Source: Acidaminococcus timonensis (GTDB taxonomy: Bacteria; Bacillota; Negativicutes; Acidaminococcales; Acidaminococcaceae). From it: a stretch of DNA of 64,000 nucleotides. This document shows, one piece after another, positions 2,033 through 62,320 of this stretch. The first letter of the stretch is position 1. Every line of letters begins with the position of its first letter. Both the position numbers and the translations under genes were made by a program. The notes below the pieces were generated by a model, which was not told where the DNA came from, searched no databases, and saw only the letters and a program-made list of their open reading frames with translations. The stretch lies in assembly GCF_900106585.1 (NCBI RefSeq), contig NZ_FNWH01000006.1:806001-870000 (forward strand). The letters run 5' to 3'.

Positions 2033-2052
2033 TATAATGATATATTCTTTTG

Positions 2053-2174
2053 TCCTTCCCTGAAAGGGAAGGGGGACCGTCCGTATGGACGGTGGATAGG
2101 TCTCACATCGGCAGTGAGACCCCTTACCCGCCAAGCGGGCCCCTTCCCTCTTTTCCACGGGACTAGGAGACTCC
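2053..2174. repeat. 122-bp dispersed repeat, copy 1 (family B)
   Basis: This stretch is almost identical to 5014-5135 (I see two differences). It is made of consecutive hairpins: CTTCCC-TGAA-GGGAAG, CCGTCC-GTAT-GGACGG, GGTCTCAC-(N)-GTGAGACC and CCCGC-CAA-GCGGG. Part of it (GGGGGACC-hairpin-GGTGG) matches the layout of the family A elements elsewhere in the window. The two copies have the same orientation and enclose about 2.8 kb. Confidence 0.8.
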
Positions 2175-4660: not shown

Positions 4661-5013
4661 GGTATCATCTTATCGCTAATACCATCGCCCAGGAAGCCCC
4701 ATACCATGCGGCATGGGGCTGTTTGTTATCATACTGGAACCTCGCTTGCCGCAAGTTTCTGCAGGCGGGCGGGTCGCCGACCCGCCCTACGGGGTTGCGG
4801 TCGCACACTCCGGGTGTTACGGTCGCAGAATACGTTTCGGGGGCGGGTCCGCCGCTGGCAGCCCCCTACGAATACCGTGATGGATGGGTTGCTCTGTTGT
4901 CGTATGTCGTTATAAAACACCGTCACTGTAGGGGCGCACCAAGACCGGCGAAGCCGTGTCGCCCGGTGCGCCCGTCCCAGGTATGTGCCATCAGGGAAGT
5001 CCGTTCTCCAGAT
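4661..5013. other. Non-coding, GC-rich hairpin region
   Basis: No gene is supported here. It begins with an AGCCCCAT/ATGGGGCT hairpin at about 4694-4720, a possible terminator for the upstream gene. Several GC-rich inverted repeats follow, for example GGCGGG-TCGCCGA-CCCGCC near 4770 and a GGGGCGCAC ... GTGCGCCC pair near 4933-4975. It looks like accumulated repeat debris and leads directly into the second family B copy. Confidence 0.5.
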
Positions 5014-5135
5014 TCCTTCCCTGAAAGGGAAGGGGGACCGTCCGTATGGACGGTGGATAGGTCTCACATCGGCAGTGAGACCCCTTACCCGCCAAGTGGG
5101 CCCCTTCCCCCTTTTCCACGGGACTAGGAGACTCC
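5014..5135. repeat. 122-bp dispersed repeat, copy 2 (family B)
   Basis: Same sequence and orientation as 2053-2174, with the differences AAGCGGG to AAGTGGG and CCCTCTT to CCCCCTT. It ends about 100 bases before hsdR. With copy 1 it flanks the segment carrying the SIMPL, exported and two-repeat proteins. Confidence 0.8.
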
Positions 5136-14122: not shown

Positions 14123-14127
14123 AAGCC

Positions 14128-47970: not shown

Positions 47971-48024
47971 AAGGGTCACTCCGTGGATTGTAGGATAGAC
48001 TTATTATAACAGAAATCTGAGGAA

Positions 48025-48048
48025 GTGATTAGTGATTAGTGGCTAGTG
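48025..48048 (+). repeat. Short heptamer array beside element A1
   Basis: GTGATTA, GTGATTA and GTGGCTA, then GTG, directly adjoin the left end of the family A element. Confidence 0.65.
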
Positions 48049-48052
48049 TAGG

Positions 48053-48266
48053 GAACCCACCACCAGCCATTCGGCTGGTCCCCCGCCCTTGGAAAGGGCG
48101 GATAATCCTGAAGCGAAGTGCTGCGTTTCGAATTGGAGTTTTGTATCAATTGATTGTTTCGGTTAAACTAATTCATCGACAAGAAACGTAAAACTTCCGA
48201 TAACAGGATATCCGCCCTTTTCAAGGGCGGGGGACCGTTGCGCTTCAGCGCAATGGTGGTGGGTTC
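48053..48266. repeat. Palindromic MITE-like element, family A copy 1
   Basis: It opens with GAACCCACCACC, then the hairpin AGCC-ATTC-GGCT, then CCCCCGCCCTT...AAGGGCGGAT. It ends with the mirror ATCCGCCCTTTTCAAGGGCGGGGG, the hairpin TTGCGC-TTCA-GCGCAA and GGTGGTGGGTTC. The AT-rich centre (about 120 bases) carries no gene. Confidence 0.85.
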
Positions 48267-48284
48267 TGCTATCGACGTATGACA

Positions 48285-48322
48285 AAAAGGAAAGGAGCTG
48301 TTATCACAGCCCCTTTCCTTTT
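48285..48322. terminator. Hairpin terminator beside the alcohol dehydrogenase scar
   Basis: AAAAGGAAAGG-AGCTG pairs with CAGC-CCCTTTCCTTTT. It is probably the original terminator of the truncated minus-strand gene. A single CGTATGA heptamer precedes it. Confidence 0.6.
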
Positions 48323-48350
48323 ATGTGTGGAGTTTGGATTGCTTTGCCGC

Positions 48351-48449
48351 TTACATCAGCTGGCGGAACATTTCGATGACCTGTTCCTTGGTGGCTTCTC
48401 TGGGGTTGCCGGGATAGCAGGCGTCGGCCAGGGCGTCCATGCAAAGTGC
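48351..48449 (-). pseudogene. C-terminal scar of an iron-containing alcohol dehydrogenase
   Basis: The minus-strand frame ends MDALADACYPGNPREATKEQVIEMFRQLM and a stop. The D-A-C-x-x-G-N-P-R-x-x-T pattern and following helix are the usual C terminus of iron-containing (1,3-propanediol/butanol-type) alcohol dehydrogenases. Everything upstream is missing; the frame runs back into the dapA terminator. It is a clear truncation relic. Confidence 0.75.
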
Positions 48450-48476
48450 AAAACAGGCCGGTTCCTGTCTTCCACG

Positions 48477-48512
48477 CAAAAAAACGCCGATGGCGGATTT
48501 CCACCATCGGCG
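48477..48512 (-). terminator. Terminator of the lysine operon
   Basis: CGCCGATGG pairs with CCATCGGCG, 12 bases after the dapA stop, with TTTTTTTG following on the minus strand. Confidence 0.85.
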
Positions 48513-48523
48513 CGGGGTTTCTC

Positions 48524-50649: not shown

Positions 50650-50697
50650 CTAAGTCAGGCTCCCCTCTCAAATTCCTGCGCTTCTCACACTGCTATC

Positions 50698-51729
50698 TTA
50701 CAGCCAGCCGTTCTTCACCATGGTTTCTGCGATCTGCAGGGTGTTCAGAGCGGCACCCTTGCGGATCTGGTCGCCCACACACCAGAAGTTGAAGCTGTTA
50801 GCAGCACTTTCGTCTCTTCTCAGACGGCCTACATACACATCGTTCTTGCCGGAGGTGTACAGAGGCATGGGATAGATCTGCTGGGACGGATCGTCCTGCA
50901 GCACCACACCCGGGAAATTGGACAGGGCCTTGCGGATGTCTTCCAGCTGTACATCATGTTCCAGTTCCACGTTGACGCTTTCGCTGTGGCTGCGGTACAC
51001 CGGTACCCGGACAGTGGTGGCGGTGATGCGCATTTCCGGATCGGAGAAGATTTTCTTGGTTTCGTTGACCATCTTCATTTCTTCCTTGGTATACAGGTTA
51101 TCCAGGAAGATATCGATCTGGGGCACCAGGTTCAGGGCCAGGGGGAAATGCTTCTTGGCAGAAGCGCTGGGGAAGATTTTGGCGGTCATTTCTTCGCCCC
51201 GGGCTGCCTGTTTGATCTGGTTTTCCAGTTCATCCAGCCCGTCCTTGCCGGCGCCGGAAGCCGCCTGGTAGGTGGAAACGATGATCCGTTTGATCCGGGC
51301 CAGGTCGTAGATGGGTTTCAGGGCCATCACCATGATGATGGTGGAGCAGTTGGGGTTGGCAATGATGCCGTGATGTTTGGTGATGTCCTGGGGGTTCACT
51401 TCCGGAACGATCAGGGGCACATCCGGATCCATCCGGTAGGTGCTGGAGTTATCGATGACCACAGCCCCGGCCTTCACCGCAATGGGAGCAAAGGTCTTGG
51501 AAATGCTGCCGCCGGCGAACAGGGCCACATCCACCCCGTTGAAGGAATCTGCCTTGGCTTCTTCCACGGTATAGGTCTTGCCCCGTACGGTCAGTTCCGT
51601 ACCGGCACTGCGGGCGGAAGCCAGCAGTTTCAGGTTCTTGAAGGGAAAATCCCGTTCGTTCAGCAGATTGATGAATTCATGGCCAACGGCGCCCGTGGCA
51701 CCCAAGATTGCTAAGTTGTATTCCTTCAT
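50698..51729 (-). CDS. asd: Aspartate-semialdehyde dehydrogenase
   Basis: A 343-residue NADP-dependent dehydrogenase that reduces aspartyl phosphate to aspartate semialdehyde. The NADP site is ILGATGAVGHEF, the catalytic cysteine is C128 (NPNCST), and STYQAASGAGKDGLDELENQ holds the family signature. The ATG is preceded by AAAGGAGAG. It lies between dapB (104 bases upstream, a gap holding half of a family A element) and lysC. Confidence 0.95.
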   Translation of the reverse strand: MKEYNLAILGATGAVGHEFINLLNERDFPFKNLKLLASARSAGTELTVRGKTYTVEEAKADSFNGVDVALFAGGSISKTFAPIAVKAGAVVIDNSSTYRMDPDVPLIVPEVNPQDITKHHGIIANPNCSTIIMVMALKPIYDLARIKRIIVSTYQAASGAGKDGLDELENQIKQAARGEEMTAKIFPSASAKKHFPLALNLVPQIDIFLDNLYTKEEMKMVNETKKIFSDPEMRITATTVRVPVYRSHSESVNVELEHDVQLEDIRKALSNFPGVVLQDDPSQQIYPMPLYTSGKNDVYVGRLRRDESAANSFNFWCVGDQIRKGAALNTLQIAETMVKNGWL

Positions 51730-51784
51730 GATTGTCTCTCCTTTATCTCAGCAGACGCAGCACTGCGGCGCCCCTTTCTGTTTC

Positions 51785-51833
51785 GATCCGCCCTTTCCAG
51801 GGGCGGGGAACCGTGTCTGTACGGTGATGGTTC
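51785..51833. repeat. Half of a family A element between dapB and asd
   Basis: GATCCGCCCTTTCCAGGGGCGGGG, the hairpin ACCGTGTCTGTACGGT and ATGGTTC match the right half of family A. The end abuts the dapB stop codon exactly (stop at 51834-51836). It lies inside the lysine operon, so it would be transcribed as an intercistronic hairpin. Confidence 0.75.
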
Positions 51834-52607
51834 TCAATCCAGGATCTGATCCAGTCCGTACACCAGGCCTTTGCGTTCCACCATGGTGCGGCAGCCCAGC
51901 ATCACGCCCGGCATGTAACATTCCCGGCTCACAGGATCGTTGCGTACCGTCAGGGTCTCGCCCATGCTGCCGAAGATGATTTCCTGGCTGGCCACGAACC
52001 CGGGCAGCCGTACGCTGTGGATCCGCATGCCTTCGTATTCGCTGCCTCTGGCATGGGGCAGTTTCTCCACTTCATCCGGGTTGCCCTGCTGTACAAAGCC
52101 GCCCCGGACCTGGGCCAGTTTCTGGGCCGTCAGGATGGCGGTGCCGCTGGGAGCATCCAGCTTCTTATCGTGGTGCATTTCGATGATTTCCACCTGGGGG
52201 AAATATTTGGCGATCTCGGCAGCCACTTTCATCATGAGCACAGCGCCCATGGCGAAGTTGGGGCAGACCAGGATGCCCACGTTGTTCTTTTCCGCCAGGC
52301 CCTTCAGTTCATCCAGGTTTTCCTGGGTGAATCCGGTGGTCCCCACCACGGCGTTCACGCCGGCGTTCAGGATCACCCGCAGGTTGGCCATGACCACATC
52401 CGGCCGGGTGAAGTCCACCACCACATCGGGTTTGTGGGCATCCAGGGCGGCTTTCAGATCCGTGTCCACCGGGCAGCCTTCCACAGCTTTATCCTTGCCG
52501 AAGACATCCACGGCCCCCACCAGTTCCATGTCCTTCTGCTGCAGGACCGTTTGTACCACGGTATGGCCCATGCGGCCCAGCGCACCGTTTACCATCACTT
52601 TGATCAT
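51834..52607 (-). CDS. dapB: 4-hydroxy-tetrahydrodipicolinate reductase
   Basis: A 257-residue NAD(P)H-dependent reductase for the second lysine-specific step. The nucleotide site is VNGALGRMGHTV, the active-site motif is EIIEMHHDKKLDAPSGTA with its paired histidines and lysine, and the C-terminal half is complete (IHSVRLPGFVASQEIIFG). I start it at the ATG at 52607 (MIKVMVNG), eleven bases after AAGGAG; an ATG three codons upstream lies only two bases from that site and is also possible. It is the first gene behind the riboswitch. Confidence 0.93.
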   Translation of the reverse strand: MIKVMVNGALGRMGHTVVQTVLQQKDMELVGAVDVFGKDKAVEGCPVDTDLKAALDAHKPDVVVDFTRPDVVMANLRVILNAGVNAVVGTTGFTQENLDELKGLAEKNNVGILVCPNFAMGAVLMMKVAAEIAKYFPQVEIIEMHHDKKLDAPSGTAILTAQKLAQVRGGFVQQGNPDEVEKLPHARGSEYEGMRIHSVRLPGFVASQEIIFGSMGETLTVRNDPVSRECYMPGVMLGCRTMVERKGLVYGLDQILD

Positions 52608-52644
52608 CTTGTCCATCGCTCCTTCTACGATTCCTTTGGGAGAC

Positions 52645-52681
52645 AAAAAAGCAGGTCATCGAGTCGAGCCCAATGACCTGC
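52645..52681 (-). terminator. Riboswitch-controlled terminator before dapB
   Basis: GCAGGTCAT pairs with ATGACCTGC and is followed on the minus strand by TTTTTTG, about 40 bases before the dapB start. It should form when lysine is bound. Confidence 0.8.
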
Positions 52682-52732
52682 AAGAAAGGAAGCCGCTCCT
52701 GCCACAGCAGGGGACTTGATTCCGTTCCCATT

Positions 52733-52882
52733 GATAGCTCTCCACCCAAAGGCGACAGTCTGCAGCTTGTTCACCTGCAGCCCAGCATAAGCGCGCACCC
52801 GCAGCTTTGCTTCGGCGGTTCCCCTTTCGCTTCCTTCAACGGTGTCCCTCTGGGAGTTACTCATGTTTTCCGCGCCTCTATC
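52733..52882 (-). promoter_or_regulatory. Lysine riboswitch (L-box) aptamer
   Basis: On the minus strand the region opens with GATAGAGGCGCG and ends with GGAGAGCTATC, whose outer bases pair as P1. In between are the conserved GAAGGAAGCGAAAGGGG, the CCGCCGAAGC junction and the CGCCTTTGGGTGG block. These are the signature parts of the lysine aptamer in their usual order. It sits between a strong promoter and a terminator hairpin ahead of dapB, so lysine would stop transcription of dapB-asd-lysC-dapA. Confidence 0.93.
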
Positions 52883-52902
52883 TTGTTTTGAATTATGGTT
52901 AC

Positions 52903-52931
52903 AGTATAGGAGTTTCCCGCTCACTTGTCAA
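52903..52931 (-). promoter_or_regulatory. Promoter of the lysine operon
   Basis: On the minus strand TTGACA (52926-52931) and TATACT (52903-52908) are separated by exactly 17 bases, about 25 bases before the riboswitch aptamer. Confidence 0.9.
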
Positions 52932-52959
52932 CTGGGAACCCCCTAATTTTGTACTTTTT

Positions 52960-53400
52960 TTATTTTCGCAGATTTTTCCGCAGTTCGGCCTGGGTCCGGC
53001 TGAAGAAATTTGTTAAGTCTTTTACAAACTGCCGGGAATAGACCGTACTGTCCAGGGTACTCCGTTTGGCAAAGATGGCCTTCTGATTGGCCAGGCTCTG
53101 CCCCTCATAGCTGTGCAGGGCTTCCAGGAGTCCCTCATAGGTAGCCCCGTAGCTGTAATCCGGGGTGGCCTCCATCTGTTTGCCCAGTGCCAGGTAGAAC
53201 CCGTTCCATTCCTCCGGGGTCAGGTCCTGCTTCAGGGCCGCCATACAGCCCCGCACCAGATGGGCCTTCAGGTAGATGTATTCCCGCAGGGCCGTTTCCC
53301 GCTGTTCCGGGAACAGTTTGAACCACTCATAAAGCTGATAGCCGCCCCAGTCTCCCATGGTATCCACCACGGAGATCAGGGTCTTCCAGTTGTTGTCCAA
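52960..53400 (-). CDS. Helical protein of unknown function
   Basis: A 146-residue, mostly alpha-helical cytosolic protein rich in aromatic and charged residues (WGGYQLYEWFKLFPEQRETALREYIYLKAHLVRGC). I do not recognise the family. The start is TTG, ten bases after GTGAGG, and lies 12 bases after the dut stop. It is probably the last gene of a unit with the exported protein at 53865 and dut. Confidence 0.6.
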   Translation of the reverse strand: MDNNWKTLISVVDTMGDWGGYQLYEWFKLFPEQRETALREYIYLKAHLVRGCMAALKQDLTPEEWNGFYLALGKQMEATPDYSYGATYEGLLEALHSYEGQSLANQKAIFAKRSTLDSTVYSRQFVKDLTNFFSRTQAELRKNLRK

Positions 53401-53412
53401 TATGTGTACGCC

Positions 53413-53868
53413 TCACTTTGATGTGCTGCCGAAGCCGCCGCTGCGCTCCTTTTTGGGAGCTCTGGCATCGTCGTCCGCCAGCAGATAGGTATAGAAGATT
53501 CCCTGGGCCACCCGCTCGCCCTTTTCCAGGGTCACATCGCTGTCGCTGTCGTTGTACAGAGCCAGCAGCAGATGGCCTTCATTGTCGGGATTGTTGTAGT
53601 AATCCGCATCCACGATGCCCTCGTTGTTCACCAGTCGCAGGTGGCGTTTCACCGCCATGCTGGACCGGATGTGGATCCCCAGGTATTCGTTGTCCTGCAT
53701 ATAGGCCTTGATCCCCGTTGGGACCATTTTCTGGGTATGGGCCGGCAGGGTCACCCTTTCCGGCAGGTAAATATCGTATCCGGCGCTGCGGGCCGTCTGC
53801 CGGCTGGGCAGTGGGAAGTCGACATCCTTATAAGAAGTGATTTTTTCAAAACCGCGGACTTTTGTCAT
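53413..53868 (-). CDS. dut: dUTPase-family protein
   Basis: A 151-residue trimeric dUTP diphosphatase-type enzyme that removes dUTP and supplies dUMP for thymidylate synthesis. The conserved motifs run in order: AGYDIYLPERVTLPAHTQ, HIRSSMAVKR, NNEGIVDADYYNNPDNEG (with the catalytic Asp), ERVAQGIFYTYL, and the C-terminal ERSGGFGSTSK arm. The ATG overlaps the stop of the upstream exported-protein gene by four bases, with GGAAAGG before it. A longer open frame upstream is out-of-frame overlap with that gene. Confidence 0.85.
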   Translation of the reverse strand: MTKVRGFEKITSYKDVDFPLPSRQTARSAGYDIYLPERVTLPAHTQKMVPTGIKAYMQDNEYLGIHIRSSMAVKRHLRLVNNEGIVDADYYNNPDNEGHLLLALYNDSDSDVTLEKGERVAQGIFYTYLLADDDARAPKKERSGGFGSTSK

Positions 53869-54338
53869 TGCTTCGACACCTTTCCTTTTTCCAGGTCCCA
53901 GGCCTGGATCTCTTTTTCCAGGGCGGCCACGAAGGTCTTCTGGGGAATGGGGGTGAATGCTTCTTTGACGTTCTTCTTTTCCAGGCTCTTTCCCTTCCGG
54001 GTCAGCACCTGGATCTGGTCGATCCGGTAGGTGTGATCCTTTCCGTTGATTTCCACGGTCATCAGGCATTCCCTGGCGGAATCCGCCTCCGGCAGGTGCT
54101 TTTCATACAGATGGTTCAGCAGCCGGATGAAAGAAGCACTTTTGATCACCGCCCGGGTATCGGCGGTAATGATGTCCGGGGTCCTGGGCTGTTGCTGGAA
54201 GGAAGCCAGGTCGGCATAGTACGCTCCGGAGGGATTCTCCCCCAGAAGGCTCCATTCCACAGGTTTGGCGGCCAGCGCCGTGCCGGACCCCCACAGGGTC
54301 ACCCAGGCGGCGGTCAGGGCCAGCAGTTGTTTTTTCAT
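53865..54338 (-). CDS. Exported protein of unknown function
   Basis: A 157-residue protein with a Sec signal peptide (MKKQLLALTAAW, cleavage near ALA-A). The mature part begins with KPVEWSLLGENPSGAYYADLASF and has a strand-rich middle (CLMTVEINGKDHTYRIDQIQVL). The SGAYYADLAS segment is reminiscent of small Negativicutes exported proteins reporting on a surface-exposed substrate, but no function is known. Its stop overlaps the dut start, an odd pairing of an exported and a nucleotide enzyme. Confidence 0.65.
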   Translation of the reverse strand: MKKQLLALTAAWVTLWGSGTALAAKPVEWSLLGENPSGAYYADLASFQQQPRTPDIITADTRAVIKSASFIRLLNHLYEKHLPEADSARECLMTVEINGKDHTYRIDQIQVLTRKGKSLEKKNVKEAFTPIPQKTFVAALEKEIQAWDLEKGKVSKQ

Positions 54339-54398
54339 GTGCCTACTCCAATCTCTGGTAATTTCTCCCTTCCATATTATAGGATACCTGCCCGGGAG

Positions 54399-54677
54399 TC
54401 AAGAGGAAGTCCGCACCCGGCCTGCCAGCAGCTCTCTGGCCCGGGGCACGTCGGCCTCGGCCACGTCGATGTAGTAGAAATTCCGGTCGATCTTGCCTTT
54501 GGGGCCAAAATCCCGGATGTCCAGCTTGGCCCCGCAGCCGCAGGTGGGAGCTTCGCTGGGGAGCTCCGTGGAAGAAAAGTCTATGCCTTGCTCCTTCAGG
54601 AGCCTCTTTGCCGCTTTCCAGTCCGCCTTGCAGCCTTTTTCCTTATACACAGTGATTTTTTTCGTAAAGAAACCCAT
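54399..54677 (-). CDS. Small protein, possibly glutaredoxin-like
   Basis: A 92-residue cytosolic protein. The opening KKITVYKEKGCKADWKAAKRLLKEQGIDF has the strand-turn-helix of a thioredoxin-like fold, with a single cysteine in the active-site position instead of CxxC. A later TCGCGAKLDIRDF holds two more cysteines that could bind metal. I use the ATG at 54677, preceded by AGGAGGTGTACAAT. The family is not identified. Confidence 0.55.
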   Translation of the reverse strand: MGFFTKKITVYKEKGCKADWKAAKRLLKEQGIDFSSTELPSEAPTCGCGAKLDIRDFGPKGKIDRNFYYIDVAEADVPRARELLAGRVRTSS

Positions 54678-54698
54678 ATTGTACACCTCCTGGGGATT

Positions 54699-54914
54699 GA
54701 ACCCACCACCATTGCGCTGAAGCGCAACGGTCCCCCGCCCTTAGAAAGGGCGGATATCCTGGGTATCAGATGATTGACGTTTCTTGGCCAAAGACAGGTT
54801 GAACAGTAAATTCAGTTTGAAGCATTCCCCATTCAGAAACGTATCCGTCCATTCTGCGATTATCCGCCCTTTTAAGGGCGGGGGACCATCTCCGCAGGAG
54901 ATGGTGGTGGGTTC
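54699..54914. repeat. Palindromic MITE-like element, family A copy 2
   Basis: GAACCCACCACC, the hairpin TTGCGC-TGAA-GCGCAA and CCCCCGCCCTTAGAAAGGGCGG are on the left. ATCCGCCCTTTTAAGGGCGGGGG, the hairpin CATCTCC-GCA-GGAGATG and GGTGGTGGGTTC are on the right. The right end encodes the C terminus and stop of the thiE-like gene. Confidence 0.85.
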
Positions 54915-55486
54915 TTCCCCCCTTCCCCCTTCAGCCACCCGCTCATCATTACTCCGCCGGCTGCCCCGGCAGCTTTCAATTCTGCTGCCCGCTCCGGTGT
55001 CACGCCGCCCAGGGCGTAGACCGGGATGGGGCTTTCCTGACACACCTGCTGCAACAATACCAGCCCCTTGGGCGGTACCCCCGGCTTGCACTGGCTGGGA
55101 TACACCGGGCTGAAGGTGCAGCAGGTGGCCCCCAGCTCTGCGGCTTCCAGGATATCGTCCAGGCTGTGACAGCTGGCTCCAATCTGTTTGGGCAGCCCCT
55201 GCCGTTCTGCCGGTCCCAGGTTGCGCAGCACAGGCAGGGGCAGGTGGAGCCCCTCCGGCTGCAGTTCCCGCGCCACTCCCGCAAAGGTGTGGAGCCAGCA
55301 GGGCACCCCATGGCGCCGGCACAGGGCCAGCACCTGGATGGCCAGTTTCCGGTACGCTGCTTCCGTCAGATCCTTTTCCCGCAGGATCAGCCCCGCCGGG
55401 TGCCTCCGCAGGATGGATTCCAGAGCTTCCAGCAAAGGCCGATTGTATAATTTCCGGTTCGTGATGCAGTACAAAGGAAAGGCCAT
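54872..55486 (-). CDS. Thiamine-phosphate synthase/TenI-like protein
   Basis: A 204-residue TIM-barrel protein of the ThiE/TenI family. ThiE couples thiazole and pyrimidine phosphates; TenI is an aromatase in thiazole formation. LILREKDL, GLHLPLPVL, IGASCHSLDDILEAAELGATCCTFSPVYPS and VYALGGVTPERAAELKAAGAAGGVMMSGWL match the family core. The replacement of the usual S-V-H segment and lack of other thi genes favour a TenI-like role. The last 14 or so residues (NPPPSPAEMVPRP) and the stop come from a family A repeat. ATG 55486 follows AGCAGG. Confidence 0.8.
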   Translation of the reverse strand: MAFPLYCITNRKLYNRPLLEALESILRRHPAGLILREKDLTEAAYRKLAIQVLALCRRHGVPCWLHTFAGVARELQPEGLHLPLPVLRNLGPAERQGLPKQIGASCHSLDDILEAAELGATCCTFSPVYPSQCKPGVPPKGLVLLQQVCQESPIPVYALGGVTPERAAELKAAGAAGGVMMSGWLKGEGGKNPPPSPAEMVPRP

Positions 55487-55524
55487 AGGATCCACCTGCT
55501 TTCTAAATAATAATTATTATCCAT

Positions 55525-55533
55525 ATTATAGCA
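55525..55533 (-). promoter_or_regulatory. Extended -10 promoter of the thiE-like gene
   Basis: The minus strand reads TGCTATAAT about 40 bases before the start codon. No TPP riboswitch is visible between it and the gene. Confidence 0.5.
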
Positions 55534-55572
55534 CAGCTCTGACTTGAAATACAGCTTTTTCTACAGAGGAAA

Positions 55573-55601
55573 GGAGCTGTGAAACAATCGTTCACAGCTC
55601 C
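55573..55601. terminator. Hairpin between convergent repeat units
   Basis: GGAGCTGTGAA pairs with TTCACAGCTCC. It may be a transcription terminator, though its T-tail is poor on both strands. Confidence 0.4.
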
Positions 55602-55610
55602 TCTATTCCT

Positions 55611-55663
55611 GCCAGCGCAGCTGGCTTCCAACGGCTGATGACTAGTGACTAGAGACTAGTGAC
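55611..55663 (+). repeat. Composite hairpin-heptamer element
   Basis: GCCAGC-GCA-GCTGGC is followed by TTCCAACGG and by GACTAGT, GACTAGA, GACTAGT and GAC. This repeats the order seen at 15603-15649. Confidence 0.8.
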
Positions 55664-55665
55664 AG

Positions 55666-55694
55666 GAGGTGTGAAAACAATTTTTTCACACCCT
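55666..55694 (-). terminator. Terminator after the exported-protein gene
   Basis: AGGTGTGAAAA pairs with TTTTTCACACCCT, the same GTGTGAAAA stem found next to the other heptamer arrays. Confidence 0.6.
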
Positions 55695-55698
55695 CTGA

Positions 55699-56466
55699 TC
55701 ACTTATTCAATGTTGTCTTCATGTTCTTGAAGAACCGGTCCAGGATCCGGTCGTAGATATCCATGGGGTTGTTCTCGCTGCCCCGGGCCCGGGCGTCCTG
55801 GCTGGAAGCCACCAGCTTTCCGGTTTTCGTGTCAAACCACTGGAACTGGACGCTTACCGCCGTATAGGGCACGTAGGAATCCGGATAATATTCCGGATAG
55901 GTGACCGTCCGGTAAAAGGTGTGCCAGTGGCCATCGTCATCCCGCCAGCTTTCCGGGATCTCATCCGTTCTCCATTCCGTATGGGCCGGCACCAGATAAC
56001 TGCTCACGGCACAATAGTCCATCCGGGGCAGGATGTACAGATCCGCTTTGGCGTCCAGGGCCGCCTGGGGGATGGTCACCTGGGTGGCGTCATTTATCTT
56101 ACTGGGCTCCAGCTGTTTTTCCAGGGCCTGCTGCCGGGCCGTTTCCGTCCCCTTCTCCGGGACTGCCGGCTTTTCCCCGGGCAGCAGGGCCCGGGGCTGG
56201 CTCACCGGCTCCACCACCAGTTTGGCCTTCTTCAGCTTCGTTTTGGCTGCCCTGGTGTTGAAATGGTCCACCATCTTCTGCTTTTTGGCCAGATTCTGCA
56301 GCCCATAGCCGCTCATATCCATCTGGGCCATATAAACGGTCCTGACTTTGCTGAAATCATATTGGGGATCCTGCCAGGAGGTGTAATCGGCCAGGGCCGG
56401 CACCGCACCCGTTAGGGCCAGGTAGCCTGCCAATAACAGCACCCGGCAGCGTTTCATCAGATCCAT
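55699..56466 (-). CDS. Exported protein of unknown function (DUF4136-like layout)
   Basis: A 255-residue protein with a signal peptide (MDLMKRCRVLLLAG, cleavage after ALA). It opens with YDFSKVRTVYMAQMDMSGYG, a turn like that of DUF4136 and related periplasmic lipoproteins, and ends in a strand-rich half (SVQFQWFDTKTGKLVASSQDARARG). The lipobox cysteine is absent. A Lys/Glu/Pro-rich stretch lies in the middle. An AAAAGGAGCTGATACC site precedes the ATG. The function is unknown. Confidence 0.65.
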   Translation of the reverse strand: MDLMKRCRVLLLAGYLALTGAVPALADYTSWQDPQYDFSKVRTVYMAQMDMSGYGLQNLAKKQKMVDHFNTRAAKTKLKKAKLVVEPVSQPRALLPGEKPAVPEKGTETARQQALEKQLEPSKINDATQVTIPQAALDAKADLYILPRMDYCAVSSYLVPAHTEWRTDEIPESWRDDDGHWHTFYRTVTYPEYYPDSYVPYTAVSVQFQWFDTKTGKLVASSQDARARGSENNPMDIYDRILDRFFKNMKTTLNK

Positions 56467-56547
56467 GGTATCAGCTCCTTTTCTGCAGGAAGGAGACGCC
56501 CTTCTGCAGCTCCACTGTATCAGCTTTGGATGAAAACCGGGTGAAGA

Positions 56548-57861
56548 TCACACGTCCTCGTCCCAGGCATTGATGTACTGGGGCTTTTTCTTCAGCATTT
56601 CCAGCTGTTCCGGGGTGAAGTAATCTTTGTGGATGACGGCTTCGTACACGAATTCTTTGAAATAGGCTTCCGAGCAGACGAAATAACCGTCCCTGCCCAC
56701 ATCCTTGCCCCAGGAGTTTTCGATTTTCCAGCGGGTGGGGTTGCCTTCGGCGTCAAAGTCCACGCCGGTGAGCAGCATGGCATGGGTGGCCGAGCTGGCG
56801 CCGTACCACAGCCGATCGCCCTTTGCCATGGTGGTGTCGAACCCACCCAGGAGCTGTTCCACCTGCACGCTGGCCGGATCCCAGATGCCCTCTTTCCGGG
56901 CCCCGTAAGCACCGGCATCACAGGCGAACCACACGGGCTGGCCGGCCTTCAGCTGTTTCACGCAAAGGTCCTCCAGCGCCTTTTGGGACAGGTTCAGAGC
57001 CAGCATATCCTTCCCCACCATGTTCTCCACCGCATGGAAGGCGATGAGCCGGTCCATTTCCTTATCCGGAGTGGGTTCGTTGATCACCGGCTGGAAATCG
57101 GCCAGGGAAATACCCACATACTTGTCGTAAAATTCCTTCGGCGTCAGGTTCCGGTGGCAGTGGTACTTCTTGTCCTTGTCCCGCCAGGCAAAGTCGAAAT
57201 GGTCCACGGGCGTACCGAAGGCGATGCACTGCGCCTTGTACACTTCCGCCAGCATGGCTTCCTTGCGGGGATAGGGATCCTGACCGGCCAGTACCAGGTC
57301 CCGCAGTTCTTTGGCATCCTTCCGCAGCAGGCGATTCAGCGTGGCCAGGAACCGGGCTGTATGTTCCGACTGGAAGGATTCCGGCTGGGCACTTTTGGGC
57401 ACCACCCCGTATTTTTCCACCAGATGGGCCGCCTCACACCAGTAGCCACCGTCCACCATGCCCCGCAGCACATACTGCATGCTCTGGCCCTTTACCGGCT
57501 CTTTCGCCTGTTCGATGACCATTTCCAGGAAGTTGTTGGCTTTTTCCAGTTTATCGTAGAAGCTCAGGTAGTTCTGGGACAGCTCGAATTTTTCGTCCAG
57601 GTTACAGGTCTCCGCCACCTTTTCCCGCAGGATGTTCAAGGCGGCGAACAGCCAGCACCGGCCGGACTGTTTCTGGGCCGTAATGCCCCGAGTCTTTACT
57701 TCCACCGCAAAGGGACCGTCATGAAGAGCAGCCTGCATGGGCACAAAGGAAAGGTCGGCCAGATCCGTCTTGGCCAGGGCCCCGTTCAAAACAGAAACAC
57801 TGGGGTCCGCTGCCACTTTGGCACGGAAGGACTGCAGCAATGCATCGTTGATTTCTTTCAT
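56548..57861 (-). CDS. pepC: Aminopeptidase C (bleomycin-hydrolase family)
   Basis: A 437-residue C1B cysteine peptidase that trims peptides from the N terminus in the cytosol. The catalytic cysteine is C69 (KQSGRCWLFAALN). The catalytic histidine is in SSATHAMLLTGVDFD and the asparagine in KIENSWGKDVG. The full length and the C-terminal arm, which enters the active site in this family, are present. It is transcribed alone; heptamer repeats lie just upstream of its start. Confidence 0.93.
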   Translation of the reverse strand: MKEINDALLQSFRAKVAADPSVSVLNGALAKTDLADLSFVPMQAALHDGPFAVEVKTRGITAQKQSGRCWLFAALNILREKVAETCNLDEKFELSQNYLSFYDKLEKANNFLEMVIEQAKEPVKGQSMQYVLRGMVDGGYWCEAAHLVEKYGVVPKSAQPESFQSEHTARFLATLNRLLRKDAKELRDLVLAGQDPYPRKEAMLAEVYKAQCIAFGTPVDHFDFAWRDKDKKYHCHRNLTPKEFYDKYVGISLADFQPVINEPTPDKEMDRLIAFHAVENMVGKDMLALNLSQKALEDLCVKQLKAGQPVWFACDAGAYGARKEGIWDPASVQVEQLLGGFDTTMAKGDRLWYGASSATHAMLLTGVDFDAEGNPTRWKIENSWGKDVGRDGYFVCSEAYFKEFVYEAVIHKDYFTPEQLEMLKKKPQYINAWDEDV

Positions 57862-57890
57862 ATTCTACACGCTCGCTTTCAGTTTATCAG

Positions 57891-57978
57891 GTTCGTAGTT
57901 CATCGTTCATAGTTCATCGTTCAAACAAATTTGCCCCCGGCGAATTTGCTCCATCGGCTAGAGACTGGTGCCTGGAGA
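57891..57978 (-). repeat. Heptamer array (GTTCATC)n and a degenerate second array
   Basis: GTTCGTA, GTTCATC, GTTCATA, GTTCATC and GTTCAAA fill 57891-57925. A weaker array, CTAGAGA, CTGGTGC and CTGGAGA, fills 57958-57978 and abuts the end of the DMT transporter gene. The unit length matches the other arrays, while the sequence differs. Confidence 0.75.
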
Positions 57979-57980
57979 CT

Positions 57981-58904
57981 TTATGATTTTTTGAGTGCCA
58001 CAAACGCCCCGCTGATCATGAGCACCATGCCGATCATCATTTTCGTCGTGATGGGTTCCCCTACGAAGAGCAGGGCAAACACCGGGCTCAGGGCCGGCTT
58101 GATGAAATAGGTCAGGCTGCCCAGGGCCACACCACCCCATTCGATGGCCAGGAACCAGCTCAGGAAGGCCACCAGGGTAATGCCGATGTACAGAACCAGG
58201 ACCCAGGGCAGATTTTCCCAGGTGTAGCCGGTGAAGAGAGGAACACAGGCGTAATTGGCAAAGCCGTGGGCCATCAGCCATTGGGACACAGCCGGGATGT
58301 GGGACAGGCCGGCCACCAGCAGCAGCTGGACACCACCCCAGAAAAAGGACCAGGCAGTCACCGTGATGCTGCCCAGATCCGTTATCAGCTTCTTGCCGCC
58401 CACGGCGTACAGGCTGTAGCAGACCACGCACAACAACAGGGCTGCCACTCCCACCGGATCCATGGTCATATGGAAGGGATCCACCAGAATGGCAATGGCC
58501 AGCACCTGCAACGCCAGAGCAATTCCCTCCCGCCGGGTAACAGGCGTATGGAGCAGCAGGGCCGCCAGCATGATGATGAACAGAGGCGTACTGGAAAAGA
58601 TGACGCCGGTGTTGGCTGCCCCCAGAGTGGCTGAAGCCATCTGGTACAGGGGGCCTACGATGGTAATGCCGGAAAAGGCCAGCAGGGCACACAGCTTCAT
58701 CTGGGCTGCATGGATGTGTGTATCCATGGCCTTCAGCCGGGCCCGGCTCCAGGGCATCAAAAACAGTCCACACAGAAAGTATCGAGTGGCGTTCACCTGG
58801 ACCCCGTTCAGATCCGCATTGATCTTTTTCATAGCCACTTCCGTCAGGCTGAACAGGACCCCTGCCAGCAGCATGCAGAAAATGGCCTTCTGGTTCTTGG
58901 TCAT
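57981..58904 (-). CDS. DMT-superfamily (EamA) transporter
   Basis: A 307-residue permease with ten predicted helices in two EamA repeats (first repeat from FCMLLAGVLFSLTEVAMKKIN, second from the WSFFWGGVQLLL region). The late LSYLTWF-type segment reads FLSWFLAIEWGGVALGSLTYFIKPALSPVFA, which is typical. Substrates of such transporters are amino acids, nucleotides or other metabolites, and this one is not known. It is followed 21 bases upstream by the DUF4153 gene on the same strand. Confidence 0.85.
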   Translation of the reverse strand: MTKNQKAIFCMLLAGVLFSLTEVAMKKINADLNGVQVNATRYFLCGLFLMPWSRARLKAMDTHIHAAQMKLCALLAFSGITIVGPLYQMASATLGAANTGVIFSSTPLFIIMLAALLLHTPVTRREGIALALQVLAIAILVDPFHMTMDPVGVAALLLCVVCYSLYAVGGKKLITDLGSITVTAWSFFWGGVQLLLVAGLSHIPAVSQWLMAHGFANYACVPLFTGYTWENLPWVLVLYIGITLVAFLSWFLAIEWGGVALGSLTYFIKPALSPVFALLFVGEPITTKMMIGMVLMISGAFVALKKS

Positions 58905-58925
58905 AGAGGAGGATGCCTTCTTTCT

Positions 58926-60560
58926 TTATTTTGTCAGCAGGGTTCCTCTGCCATTGATTTGTTTACCCGGCTGGGCCTGGAATCCTGCTCGGTCTCCACT
59001 CAGAGAGAAGAGTATCAGCTTGTGCTGGCCGTCCAGCTGGAATTCCAGGGCCTCCGGAGGAACGGCGCCGCCGGAAGGGTATTTCTCAGTCAATTTCTTC
59101 AGCTGCCGGGACACATCCCAGGTCTGTTCCGTCTGACTGGGCAGCCCGTACTGCAGTTTCCCTGCCCGGATGGCAAAACCGCGTTCCAGGCTTGCGGTAC
59201 TATATCCGGCCACAGGGATATTCAGCCGTTCAGTCCGATAATGCAGGTTATTGCCCCGTACGGTCTGGACAGGTTCCCGAGGCAGCGTGGCCAGAAAGTC
59301 CAGCTGCTGCCGGATCCGTTCCACATTGGGATATCGCCAGCTGCCCGGACTATGGGACAGGTAAGCAAAGCTGCTGCGGAGGAGTTTACTGTCTTCCGGC
59401 GATAGATTCCGCCCGCTGGCCAGCTGATCTCCCTGTACCAGCTGGTTCCGCTCCAGCACCCCATCCAGCCGCCGGGCCTGGAACCAGGCGGGCAGGTCGA
59501 TGAGATTGAGCGGCGTCAGGATCAGTACCAGAGTCAGCAGGCTACTCAAAAGGTACAGTTTCCGGGGTTTCCACCGGAAGAAGCCACACACCAGGGTGCA
59601 GATTCCGAATCCCGTACAGCACAGGGACAGGTACCGCAGAGAGGTCAGGCTGTAGGCGGAAAGCCGGATGTACAGGCCGGCAAACTGGCCGATGAGCACC
59701 GGGATCAGCAGCAGGGCGCCCCAGTGCAGGGCTTTTTTCTGCCAGGCCGGTTCCCCCTTCCAGAAGGAGAAGTACAGCAGGGCGTACACCGCCATCAGGA
59801 ACAGGCCGAAGGGGTTCATGAGCCCCACGGGCAGGCTCTTCTGCCACAGGCTGCGTACCAGATACTGGTAGACCACCAGCAGCAGGAATATGGCGCAGGG
59901 CAGCAGGATCCGTTTCCAGAGAGTGGTATAGAGCGGCGGCACGGAGACCGGGTCGTCAGCTTTGGGGATGCAGGAGATGAAATACTGGAACCCCGCCACG
60001 CCAAAGGAAAGATAAGAAATCCACAGCATCCAGGGCAGGTCCAGGGGATACAGCAGCAAGCTGACGCTGGTGTAGCACAGACCCAGCATACAGTTCACCA
60101 CGGACGCCAGCAGCAAGGTCTTCACACCCGCCACCACAAAATGGCCAAACAGCTGGGGTTTGCCTTCCCGGCTGTCACAGAAAAACAGGCTGAGTTCCAG
60201 GCAAAGAGGCAGCAGGCCGACCAGCACCAGCAGCACATACTGGGAAAAGCCGGTACCGGGAAGTCGCTCCAAAAAACGCCACAAAAGCAGAAAAAACAGG
60301 AAGCAGGCCGCGTCCCGACGCAGTTCCACCCGGCCGTACCGTTCGTTGTACAGGCGCCAGGGAACGGAAACAAGGGCGACGACACCCGCGGCCAAAAGGG
60401 CCGAAGAAAAGTTGTTCTTCTGGAGCAGCCAGGAAAGGTTGCCGGACACCAGCACAAAAAACCAGGCCAGGGCAATGCCCCAGGTGGCGATCAGAGCCGG
60501 TTTGAACCGCTGGTTCCGCTCCCAGATGCCCAGAAAAAAAGAATGGATACGAGAAAGCAT
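58926..60560 (-). CDS. DUF4153 membrane protein
   Basis: A 544-residue protein with about twelve hydrophobic helices in residues 15-365 and a soluble C-terminal domain (365-544) containing repeated HxY/YxT motifs (RTERLNIPVAGYSTASLERG). The membrane part matches the DUF4153 group, which often occurs near cell-envelope genes. The role is unknown. I use the ATG at 60560 behind AAGGAGGGG; a TTG directly before it gives one more residue. Confidence 0.78.
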   Translation of the reverse strand: MLSRIHSFFLGIWERNQRFKPALIATWGIALAWFFVLVSGNLSWLLQKNNFSSALLAAGVVALVSVPWRLYNERYGRVELRRDAACFLFFLLLWRFLERLPGTGFSQYVLLVLVGLLPLCLELSLFFCDSREGKPQLFGHFVVAGVKTLLLASVVNCMLGLCYTSVSLLLYPLDLPWMLWISYLSFGVAGFQYFISCIPKADDPVSVPPLYTTLWKRILLPCAIFLLLVVYQYLVRSLWQKSLPVGLMNPFGLFLMAVYALLYFSFWKGEPAWQKKALHWGALLLIPVLIGQFAGLYIRLSAYSLTSLRYLSLCCTGFGICTLVCGFFRWKPRKLYLLSSLLTLVLILTPLNLIDLPAWFQARRLDGVLERNQLVQGDQLASGRNLSPEDSKLLRSSFAYLSHSPGSWRYPNVERIRQQLDFLATLPREPVQTVRGNNLHYRTERLNIPVAGYSTASLERGFAIRAGKLQYGLPSQTEQTWDVSRQLKKLTEKYPSGGAVPPEALEFQLDGQHKLILFSLSGDRAGFQAQPGKQINGRGTLLTK

Positions 60561-60649
60561 CAAAGGATCCCCTCCTTAGAAAAGCTGAAATGGTGTTTTT
60601 ATTATACCATTTTGCAGGGAAAGGGAGAAGATGGAGGCGCCAGCAGGGT

Positions 60650-60712
60650 GGAACCCGCCAGGCCCGATGCGGAACCCACCAGGCCCGATGCGGAACCCAC
60701 CAGGCCCGATGC
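60650..60712. repeat. Three tandem 21-bp units leading into element A3
   Basis: The unit is GGAACCCACCAGGCCCGATGC and occurs three times (the first with one change). The fourth start continues as the family A end. Each unit combines the first bases of family A with a 10-base flank. Confidence 0.85.
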
Positions 60713-60713
60713 G

Positions 60714-60892
60714 GAACCCACCACCAGCCTCCGGCTGGTCCCCCGCCCTTAGAAAGGGCGGATAACCTTGTTGTCGAATGGGTAACGTTGCTGGTCGATC
60801 CTCCATCTCGGAACCCGACACTCCGTCCCACAGGTATCCGCCCTTTTCAAGGGCGGGGGACCGTTGCGCCCGGGCGCAATGGTGGTGGGTTT
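60714..60892. repeat. Palindromic MITE-like element, family A copy 3
   Basis: Left: GAACCCACCACC, the hairpin AGCC-TCC-GGCT and CCCCCGCCCTTAGAAAGGGCGG. Right: ATCCGCCCTTTTCAAGGGCGGGGG, the hairpin TTGCGC-CCGG-GCGCAA and GGTGGTGGG. The central sequence is related to copy 4, not to copies 1 and 2. Confidence 0.85.
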
Positions 60893-60900
60893 TATCCCTG

Positions 60901-61057
60901 TCCTCCGCCCTGGCGCATTGAAGGCGGATATAGTTGTTTTATTTGGCTGGCGTTGCTTGTCGATCCCCCATCTCGAAACCCGGCACCCCGGTCCACGGGT
61001 ATCCGCCCTTTTCAAGGGCGGGGGACCGTTGCGCCCTGGCGCAATGGTGGTGGGTTC
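60901..61057. repeat. Palindromic element, family A copy with decayed left end
   Basis: The left half is reduced to CCGCCCTGGCGCATTGAAGGCGGATA. The centre and right half match copy 4 closely, with the hairpin TTGCGCCCTGGCGCAA. The right end encodes the last 15 residues and stop of the DUF559 gene. Confidence 0.75.
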
Positions 61058-61431
61058 TTCTCCCCCTCTTCCATCCTCAGTTTTACTTCCTTATCGATCA
61101 CATACATGACCCCATCAAAATTCCTCCAGATGTCCCGATTGGTGAATCGCAGTACTTTAAAACCGTACCGGCTCAGTTCCCTTGTCCGGATGCTGTCGTA
61201 CTGCCGGGCCTCGGGAGCATAGTGCTGGCCGCCGTCGATTTCTACAATCAGCCGGGCCCGGGCACAGTAAAAATCCACAATGTACCCGGCAAGGATTTTC
61301 TGCCGCAGGAAACGGACCGGATAGGACTGCAGGAACTGGAACCACAAATGGCGTTCTTCCGGCGTCATGTGCCGGCGCATGGTCCGGGCATAGTGCTTCA
61401 GGCGGCGATCGGTCGAGGTTTCATGGTACAT
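61012..61431 (-). CDS. DUF559-family endonuclease-like protein
   Basis: A 139-residue protein of the DUF559 group, related to the very-short-patch-repair (Vsr) nuclease fold. D53 (YIVDFY) and the E64-I-D66-G-G-Q motif give a PD-(D/E)XK-type active site. N-terminal MTPEERHLWFQFL is the usual start helix. Members are small nucleases often seen near mobile DNA; function is undefined. The C-terminal tail from about residue 125 (KNPPPLRQGATVPRP) and the stop are encoded by the neighbouring family A repeat. It lies between two repeat copies, facing away from the DUF4153 gene. Confidence 0.8.
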   Translation of the reverse strand: MYHETSTDRRLKHYARTMRRHMTPEERHLWFQFLQSYPVRFLRQKILAGYIVDFYCARARLIVEIDGGQHYAPEARQYDSIRTRELSRYGFKVLRFTNRDIWRNFDGVMYVIDKEVKLRMEEGEKNPPPLRQGATVPRP

Positions 61432-61466
61432 GGTGCAGAGTCTCCTTTGTTGTAGATTGGGATGAA

Positions 61467-61646
61467 GAACCCACCACCAGCCTTCCGGCTGGTCCCCCGC
61501 CCTTAGAAAGGGCGGATATAGTTGTGGTCATTTGGCTGGCGTTGCTTGTCGATCCTCCATCTCGAAACCCGGCACTCCGGTCCACGGGTATCCGCCCTTT
61601 TCAAGGGCGGGGGACCGTTGCGCCCCGGCGCAATGGTGGTGGGTTC
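61467..61646. repeat. Palindromic MITE-like element, family A copy 4
   Basis: GAACCCACCACC, the hairpin AGCC-TTCC-GGCT and the CCCCCGCCCTTAGAAAGGGCGG / mirror core are followed by the hairpin TTGCGC-CCCG-GCGCAA and GGTGGTGGGTTC. A decayed extra right end (GTGGTGGCGGGTTCT) lies at about 61672-61687. Confidence 0.85.
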
Positions 61647-61710
61647 TTCTATCCCTCTTCTTTGCCCGCGCCGTGGTGGCGGGTTCTGTTTTCTGCGGAT
61701 TCCTCCAGCA

Positions 61711-61748
61711 AAAGGGGGGTACCGCCTGCGTTTGCGGTACCCCCTTTG
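61711..61748. terminator. Terminator of the polymerase/YolD-PC4 operon
   Basis: AAAGGGG-GTACCGC pairs with GCGGTACCCCCTTT, a few bases after the minus-strand stop. Both strands have T-rich flanks. Confidence 0.75.
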
Positions 61749-61756
61749 CTTCTTTT

Positions 61757-62320
61757 TCAGCCCCGATTCTTAAAATACTGGAACAGGATTTTGCACAGGT
61801 CCCTGGCCTCTTCTTCGCTCAGGGTGATGCCTTTGCTCATTTTTTCGTGCTCCGGAGCCCATTCCCGCAGGTCGAACTTCGGTTTCATCCCGTTGTAGGA
61901 CACCCGGTTAATCTCTTTGGTCCACCCTTTCTTGCTGGTGGACAGCACGCCCAGTTCCTCCACCAGCTCATAGCTGAAATCAGAATCTCCTTTTCCTGCC
62001 ATGCCGCTACCTCCTTGCTGTTTTTTCCTTTGCTGATCGACCCCAGGTCCATTATACCGGAAATCCTCTTTTTGGGAACCCCCCACCGTCATCATCTGCA
62101 ATTTCTCCGCAACTTCGTGATTCACTGCAGGATCCCCGGTGTAGCGATGGGCTGTTTCCACGGCTTCCTCCACCTGCTGATCCGTGGCCGCCACCAGTTC
62201 CTCATACCCCACCAGGGCCGCAAAGGGGGCAAACTGGGCAGCCCTTTGCTTCCTGGGCATCCGGGGCCGGGGCAGCGTCTTCGGATGGGGCAGCCCCACC
62301 AAGTCTTTTTCCCCGTTCAC
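61757..62320 (-). CDS. YolD-like domain fused to a PC4/YdbC ssDNA-binding domain
   Basis: One open frame of 187 residues. Residues 1-95 resemble YolD-like proteins that accompany Y-family polymerases (RAAQFAPFAALVGYEE, then QQVEEAVETAHRY). Residues 107-187 are a PC4/YdbC-type single-strand DNA-binding domain (LGVLSTSKKGWTKEINRVSYNG, KFDLREWAPEHEKMSKGITLSEEEARDL). The GTG start overlaps the polymerase stop (GTGA). Within the linker AAGGAGG lies seven bases before an in-frame ATG at 62002, so a separate 81-residue PC4 protein could also be made. The role is probably lesion-bypass support. Confidence 0.78.
   Translation of the reverse strand: MNGEKDLVGLPHPKTLPRPRMPRKQRAAQFAPFAALVGYEELVAATDQQVEEAVETAHRYTGDPAVNHEVAEKLQMMTVGGSQKEDFRYNGPGVDQQRKKQQGGSGMAGKGDSDFSYELVEELGVLSTSKKGWTKEINRVSYNGMKPKFDLREWAPEHEKMSKGITLSEEEARDLCKILFQYFKNRG

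What the first reader, a model, noticed from the sequence alone, without database searches (positions are those of the whole stretch)
54872..61056. Repeat element supplies the C terminus and stop codon of unrelated genes
The thiE-like protein ends in KNPPPSPAEMVPRP and the DUF559 protein in KNPPPLRQGATVPRP. Both tails are read in the same frame from the end of a family A element, and the stop codon is inside the element. The dapB stop at 51834 directly abuts another copy. The element therefore tends to land at gene ends and provides an in-frame, terminating tail, similar in principle to repeats that become coding.
Basis: seen in the sequence. Interest (0 to 1): 0.7.

Follow-up and report, generated by a model that had tools for sequence, protein, structure and literature searches.

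The report
Nuclease gene wrapped in hairpin repeats
The two odd protein tails are real, but they are rare by-products of a scattered hairpin-shaped DNA repeat; the more interesting point is that one of the two genes belongs to a family of small nucleases often found wrapped in such repeats, which may be what spreads them.

Summary
The ThiE-like (54872-55495) and DUF559 (61012-61431) genes read in one frame into family A arms and stop inside them. The orthologues compared lack both tails. The generalisation fails: only these 2 of 40 arms fetched from the own genome contain a stop codon, and 0 of 113 arms from other genomes. Repeat-supplied tails are already published (PMC2759123).

The genes are not both 'unrelated'. 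DUF559, a Vsr-like PD-(D/E)XK nuclease family, often sits among two-hairpin elements: 14 of 17 DUF559 loci (one per genome) have one within 210 bp, against 0 of 30 GIY-YIG, 0 of 18 Y1-transposase and 1 of 11 ThiE-family loci. Four element families each have their highest count in the Acidaminococcus genome whose DUF559 carries that family. Two 553-bp DUF559 units begin and end sharply at inverted arms.

Best reading: a REPIN/MITE-like repeat whose probable partner is the DUF559 nuclease. The DUF559 tail follows from that nesting; the ThiE tail is an insertion accident. No mobility assay, clean empty site or target duplication was obtained.

The parts
54872..55495 (-). ThiE-like (TMP-TENI) gene; last 13 codons and stop (54872-54913) are inside a family A arm
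   Evidence: Pfam PF02581 E 8.9e-35; orthologues without the tail
54699..54914 (.). Full family A element (two inverted arms, 54700-54753 and 54863-54913) between thiE and the next gene; its other end lies just before that gene's apparent ribosome-binding site
   Evidence: both arms fold as two hairpins, z -5.1 to -5.9
61012..61431 (-). DUF559 (Vsr-like PD-(D/E)XK nuclease family) gene; last 14 codons and stop (61012-61056) are inside a family A arm
   Evidence: Pfam PF04480 E 3.6e-31; PDB 3hrl_A E 5.8e-14; invariant E26 D53 E64 D66 H70
61003..61515 (-). DUF559 with its two nearest arms: hairpin 2 outermost, AACCCACC boxes facing the gene, the layout of the sharply bounded 553-bp units of G022
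   Evidence: arm positions; layout of L188 units
60713..60899 (.). Full family A element downstream of DUF559 (arms 60715-60761 and 60838-60891)
60895..61056 (.). Second family A copy; its left half is degenerate, its right arm 61003-61056 supplies the DUF559 tail
61467..61653 (.). Full family A element upstream of DUF559 (arms 61468-61515 and 61592-61645)
48053..48273 (.). Full family A element elsewhere in the window, intergenic
51786..51833 (-). Degenerate single arm abutting the dapB stop codon (51834-51836)
2052..2174 (-). Family C element, the family that flanks the genome's second DUF559 gene
5013..5135 (-). Family C element, second copy in the window (core with 1 mismatch)

Best explanation
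Family A is a dispersed, mainly intergenic two-hairpin repeat. Each arm is an AACCCACC box, hairpin 1 (variable sequence, conserved pairing) and hairpin 2 (CCGCCCTTnnAAAGGGCGG), and arms often come in inverted pairs. It is most likely mobilised or amplified by the DUF559 nuclease it surrounds, as REP/REPIN repeats are thought to be by their RAYT transposase. The DUF559 gene runs into its own 3' arm because it is nested among its elements. The thiE tail arose when a non-coding copy inserted at or near the thiE stop; that frame is closed by the hairpin 2 loop (CCT TAA/TAG/TGA). Shown: anatomy, tails, orthologues without tails, the DUF559-element association, family counts, repeated units bounded by arms. 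Inferred: that DUF559 acts on the arms, drives spread, and does so through single-stranded hairpins.
For: Elements near 44 DUF559 genes: 2.58 per kb within 150 bp against 0.15 per kb at 5-10 kb. Element within 150 bp: 24 of 44 DUF559 against 30 of 294 long ORFs at least 1 kb away in the same stretches, Fisher p 1e-10. One locus per genome: 14 of 17 DUF559 against 0 of 30 GIY-YIG, 0 of 18 Y1_Tnp, 1 of 11 ThiE-family. Counts in 9 Acidaminococcus genomes: A 85/36/7/6 (G006, G000, G007, G003; 1 mismatch), B 7/2/1 (G006, G003, G007), C 56/1/1 (G000, G006, G007), D 22 (G002 only; B-D 2 mismatches); each is highest where a DUF559 flanked by that family exists. G022: two 553-bp DUF559 units, 99.6% identical and 2.4 kb apart, begin and end at inverted arms with unrelated sequence outside. 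G002: three units about 95% identical, similarity ending within about 60 nt of the arms. In genus g26 the three DUF559-bearing genomes tested give 18-26 matches to the locus with its repeats, the two tested without it 3 and 6. On plasmid records DUF559 lies inside conserved gene orders such as sufB-sufC. Y1_Tnp gave no match in G006, the genome with most copies.
Against: No transposition was seen and no target-site duplication found. The one candidate empty site (G074) has also lost the start of the next gene, so it is not clean. Some unit pairs share sequence beyond the arms: G022 copies 2 and 3 for about 300 bp past the right arm at 82%, and a fourth, deleted G002 copy with copy a for about 290 bp. 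G003 and G007 carry 6-7 family A copies without a DUF559 match, and the four G004 and G008 genes tested have no element detected within 150 bp. Patterns B-D were taken from sequence beside DUF559 genes, so finding them most often in those genomes is partly built in. In the units hairpin 2 is outermost, in dispersed pairs the AACCCACC box is outermost. On plasmid records the detector finds elements at only 5 of 12 DUF559 loci.
Confidence: 0.6

Rival explanations
1. One reading: the repeat is an exaptable coding tail that preferentially lands at gene ends and gives genes a terminating C terminus.
For: Two tails in one frame; orthologues without them; three further own-genome sites within 10 nt of a stop; precedent in Delihas 2007; 35 of 40 own arms have a length divisible by three, so the NPPP frame leads to VPRP.
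Against: Only 2 of 40 own arms and 0 of 113 others contain a stop. Arm length is not frame-conserved elsewhere: 45 of 113 divisible by three. Outside the own genome stops are no nearer than starts: 1 of 46 each within 10 nt in Acidaminococcus stretches.
Confidence: 0.1
2. DUF559 genes are passive passengers: they accumulate next to repeats because repeats mark tolerant, recombinogenic intergenic regions, and another enzyme moves the repeats.
For: Family A copies exist without a DUF559 match in G003 and G007. A Legionella study reports repeated segments holding a transposase and DUF559 as recombination hotspots (passages read). Some repeated DUF559 segments extend past the arms.
Against: Other small genes of the class are not flanked: GIY-YIG 0 of 30, Y1_Tnp (genus) 0 of 18. 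DUF559 genes are flanked by families dispersed in their own genomes. The L188 unit pair stops at the arms.
Confidence: 0.25
3. The arms are regulatory RNA or terminator structures kept by selection at transcript ends, not mobile DNA.
For: Stable hairpins on both strands, z -4.2 to -5.9; intergenic location.
Against: No run of T follows hairpin 2 in the arms printed; copy number runs from 0 to 85 between species of one genus; no Rfam match in 47800-62000 other than a lysine riboswitch; sites are not confined to gene 3' sides.
Confidence: 0.05

Closest known systems
REP/REPIN repeats and RAYT (Y1 tyrosine) transposases (from search listings, and recall)
   Same: Short hairpin repeats, often in inverted pairs, extragenic, with a partner nuclease gene flanked by the repeats (partner relation inferred here)
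   Different: Two hairpins per arm and a CCCACC box rather than a GTAG/CGTC tag; partner is a DUF559 PD-(D/E)XK gene; no Y1_Tnp match in the genome with most copies
Enterobacterial RU-1/RU-2 small mobile sequences (Delihas 2007, PMC2759123; passages read)
   Same: A non-autonomous repeat fused to a gene's 3' end removes the normal stop and supplies a C-terminal tail and stop
   Different: Named there for other repeats in enterobacteria; here only 2 of 40 copies do it, and one of the two genes belongs to the element's own neighbourhood
Vsr-like / DUF559 (COG2852, YcjD) nucleases
   Same: Fold family and invariant acidic/His residues; PMC1189080 treats YcjD as PD-(D/E)XK and its profile detects Vsr (passages read)
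   Different: A link to palindromic repeats was not seen in the searches made

Membership tests
REP/RAYT (REPIN) system | Short imperfect palindromes, often as inverted pairs | tested here: met
REP/RAYT (REPIN) system | Conserved GTAG or CGTC tag at one end (title and start of abstract of PMC3733652 in listings, plus recall) | tested here: not met
   The box beside the hairpins is AACCCACC; no such conserved tag in the arms printed (list partly cut)
REP/RAYT (REPIN) system | Partner Y1 tyrosine transposase flanked by the repeats | tested here: not met
   No PF01797 match in G006 with 85 copies; 0 of 18 Y1_Tnp loci of the genus have an element within 210 bp
MITE of an autonomous element | Terminal inverted repeats shared with an autonomous copy | tested here: inconclusive
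   Two-hairpin arms bound DUF559 units and dispersed copies, but arm orientation differs and autonomy is not shown
MITE of an autonomous element | Target-site duplication and clean empty site | tested here: inconclusive
   No duplication seen at the G002 and G022 units inspected; G074 lacks the block but its junction is deleted
DUF559 / Vsr-like nuclease family | DUF559 profile match with invariant catalytic-type residues | tested here: met
   PF04480 E 3.6e-31; 18 invariant columns incl. E26 D53 E64 D66 H70 in 16 sequences
Homing endonuclease-like mobile gene | Cleaves its cognate empty site and copies itself there | not testable with these tools
   Needs biochemistry
Repeat-derived coding tail (RU-type, Delihas) | Orthologues end earlier; the extension and stop come from the repeat | tested here: met
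   ThiE and DUF559

The most novel reading that the evidence does not exclude
DUF559/COG2852 nucleases, found in several phyla and of largely uncertain role, are the dedicated enzymes of a widespread class of two-hairpin mobile repeats. The gene with its arms is the autonomous member, and the CACC/CTCCCC-type palindromes of many genomes are its non-autonomous copies: a counterpart of RAYT-REP with a Vsr-like nuclease.
Probability: 0.45. Interest if true: 0.85.

Novelty: new variant of a known kind. Interest (0 to 1): 0.55.

Why it matters
If DUF559 drives these repeats, a nuclease family of largely uncertain role gets a function, a common kind of bacterial palindromic repeat gets an enzyme, and the reason why such genes keep ending in Pro/Arg-rich tails is explained. 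It also gives an annotation rule: tails such as NPPP...VPRP or TPPAGTPL are repeat sequence read in frame, not protein domains.

Tried and rejected
Rejected: a general tendency to supply stops. Rejected: RAYT as mobiliser. Rejected: a known Rfam RNA for the elements of 47800-62000. A strand preference was looked for: stem mismatches are A.C 16 against G.T 1 (own genome) and 74 against 1 (others), i.e. G.T/G.U on the complementary strand; most come from one shared hairpin type, so this is a hint, not independent evidence. An empty site was sought in genus g26 (5 of the 8 genomes of it seen): G074 lacks the whole block but also the next gene's start, and G045 has unrelated sequence there, so no target duplication could be read. 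Suf-operon matches without DUF559 are many but, at about 73-76% identity in the rows listed, too distant for a junction. The structural detector misses hairpins with long loops, so it sees neither the G002 family nor the sharp L188 units, and several plasmid-record palindromes visible by eye; its counts are low estimates on both the DUF559 and the control side.

Dropped rows: three false tblastn hits (second hits in L167, L177; first in L192) left out; arms without the outer box left out; L152-L164 (weak or multidomain DUF559 matches) and the window's own ThiE locus L029 left out; 12 of 28 plasmid records fetched. The gene caller is home-made (codon model) and was not compared with an annotation. 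Of the 8 DUF559 genes counted as stop-in-element (12-nt padding), L184, L191 and L199 are one event in one genus, and L201 and L202 only abut; four cases (L166, the L184 group, L197, window) are clear and independent.

Full report
What was checked. The window lies in a 2.30-Mb genome (G000) of a genus of which 9 genomes are held. The same repeat core was found in named records of A. fermentans WCA-389-WT-5B, A. massiliensis Marseille-P2828, a Selenomonadaceae MAG and a Schwartzia MAG. From equal contig lengths I infer that G006 is that A. fermentans and G003 that A. massiliensis, hence that the genus is Acidaminococcus. The species of the window was not identified.

The observation. Both tails are as described. 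Tail codons AAC CCA CCA CCA ... GTC CCC CGC CCT TAA/TGA start at the AACCCACC box of a family A arm, run through hairpin 1 and stop in the loop of hairpin 2. The frame closes when the two variable loop bases are AA, AG or GA. In the own genome 35 of 40 arms have a length divisible by three, so a gene entering in the NPPP frame tends to reach VPRP. ThiE orthologues at 58-65% identity in G003, G006, G007 and G008 end 5-8 residues after the conserved GWW or its equivalent, without the tail. The syntenic A. fermentans DUF559 ends DKEVRKRVKQ*. The dapB neighbour is a degenerate arm that abuts, but does not supply, the stop.

How often. The 40 arms form 27 sites: 21 tandem, 4 convergent, 2 divergent; gaps of at least 60 bp in the same stretches are 90, 16 and 22. 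In the own genome 5 of 25 sites with a stop on one side lie within 10 nt of it or over it, and 0 of 23 that near a start. In other Acidaminococcus stretches it is 1 of 46 and 1 of 46, in the MAG stretches 1 of 7 and 0 of 6. This is an extragenic repeat that is tolerated at 3' ends, not a regular stop-codon donor. That a small mobile repeat can replace a stop and extend a protein is in print: RU-1 and the amidase ECA3499 (PMC2759123, passages read).

Anatomy. The three window arms folded give two hairpins on either strand, z -4.2 to -5.9 against dinucleotide shuffles. Hairpin 1 keeps pairing through many sequences: by the script's pairing 14 distinct stems among 40 own arms, 20 among 113 others. 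Arms often occur in inverted pairs, about 75-315 bp from start to start. Family A has 38 cores in the own genome within 2 mismatches. At 1 mismatch it has 36 there, 85 in G006, 7 in G007, 6 in G003, and none in the five other genus genomes or in 52 genomes outside the genus.

DUF559 is not an unrelated gene. In the window it lies between two family A arrays (60713-61056 and 61467-61653). Its A. fermentans orthologue lies between family A arrays too, and the second DUF559 of A. fermentans between arms of another family, B. The second DUF559 of G000 is next to a third family, C, and in G002 six DUF559 copies or remnants have a family D arm just downstream. Over 9 genus genomes B is 7 in G006 (2 and 1 elsewhere), C 56 in G000 (1 and 1 elsewhere), D 22 in G002 only. 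These patterns were taken from sequence beside DUF559 genes, so the comparison between genomes is partly built in; the dispersal within each genome is not. Outside the genus, DUF559 genes of other Negativicutes stand among CACCTCCCC-type two-hairpin elements.

Controls. A structural detector (two adjacent hairpins, pyrimidine-rich second left arm) was run on 38 stretches plus the window, 44 DUF559 genes: 34 elements in 13.2 kb within 150 bp, 46 in 307.6 kb at 5-10 kb. Element within 150 bp: 24 of 44 DUF559, 30 of 294 control ORFs, Fisher p 1e-10. One genome, G126, is dense in elements (13 of its 23 controls). None is detected at 8 G002, 3 G008, 1 G004 and 1 G135 genes; five of the 8 G002 genes have family D arms that the detector cannot see. 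Stop inside or within 12 nt of an element: 8 of 44 against 4 of 294, p 1.5e-5; about four of the eight are clear and independent. With one best locus per genome DUF559 has 14 of 17, GIY-YIG 0 of 30, Y1_Tnp of the genus 0 of 18, ThiE family 1 of 11; of 12 plasmid-record loci (28 hits) 5 do. Several of these DUF559 proteins end in element-coded tails: TPPAGTPL*, NTPRPNGHPSLEGT*, NPPTHPAS* and, on a Sphingomonas record, SPSPSRLREGGL*.

Unit boundaries. In G022 two DUF559 units of 553 bp, 99.6% identical and 2.4 kb apart, begin and end exactly at inverted two-hairpin arms with hairpin 2 outermost, and the outer flanks differ. No duplicated target is seen at their edges. The window's DUF559 with its two nearest arms (61003-61515) has the same layout. 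In G002 three units of about 0.8 kb, about 95% identical, lie within 15 kb; similarity ends within about 60 nt of the arms. Against a simple picture, a fourth, deleted G002 copy shares about 290 bp past the right arm with copy a, and G022 copies 2 and 3 share about 300 bp past it. In genus g26 the tested genomes with the DUF559 block (G063, G091, G099) return 26, 26 and 18 matches to the locus and its repeats, those without it (G045, G074) 6 and 3; these are matches, not copies. G074 lacks the block, but its junction has also lost the start of the next gene. On plasmid records DUF559 lies between sufB and sufC and within hpa gene clusters.

Mechanism. I think it most likely that the DUF559 nuclease recognises the hairpin arms and promotes their spread, with DUF559 plus its arms as the autonomous unit and the dispersed pairs as dependants. 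Hairpin ends without a target duplication would suit a single-strand route like that of IS200/IS605 elements (recalled), and stem mismatches favour the GGTGGTGGG strand as the folded one, though mostly through one shared hairpin type. DUF559 reads into its 3' arm because gene and arm adjoin; thiE was extended when a copy landed at its end. The nuclease step is inferred.

Known or new. All 14 papers of the library that name DUF559 were listed. Judged by title and start of abstract none concerns repeats; two were opened at the passage: the Caulobacter VsrA paper treats it as a Vsr-like repair protein, and a Legionella paper reports repeated transposase/DUF559 segments as recombination hotspots. 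The search with COG2852 and YcjD listed 3 papers, one opened at passages. Broader searches showed only the top of long lists. The library lacks most subscription journals, so the novelty claim is limited to those searches.

Noticed in passing
window 52727-52888 (-): Lysine riboswitch (RF00168, 80.4 bits) upstream of dapB.
   Followed up: no
window 2052-2174 and 5013-5135: Two family C elements; this second family has 56 core matches in the genome and flanks its other DUF559 gene at G000:C6:574785.
   Followed up: partly
window 60650-60712: Three tandem 21-nt units GGAACCC(G/A)CCAGGCCCGATGC beside an element, as if the outer box were being duplicated.
   Followed up: no
window 11381-14243, 15609-15643, 55632-55668: Another short repeat of the type TGACTAGAGACTAGTGAC in several places, in part as inverted arms.
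   Followed up: no
NC_016623.1 254766-256695 (Azospirillum lipoferum 4B): A GIY-YIG nuclease gene is annotated with sufB and sufC under the match to the Sphingomonas sufB-DUF559-sufC stretch.
   Followed up: no
L061, L093, L103, L113 (Selenomonadaceae MAG): The arm core occurs outside the genus with its own longer shared flank (like GAGGGTAAGAGAAAA upstream), suggesting a separate miniature element.
   Followed up: no
L106 2615-2738 and L097 3266-3290: In A. fermentans and A. massiliensis an arm sits about 18 nt before the apparent start of the same gene, in A. fermentans with partial tandem copies.
   Followed up: no
G022 genome (L175-L177, L186-L188): A 1.3-Mb genome of the same family has eight DUF559 matches, among them two nearly identical 553-bp units 2.4 kb apart.
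   Followed up: partly
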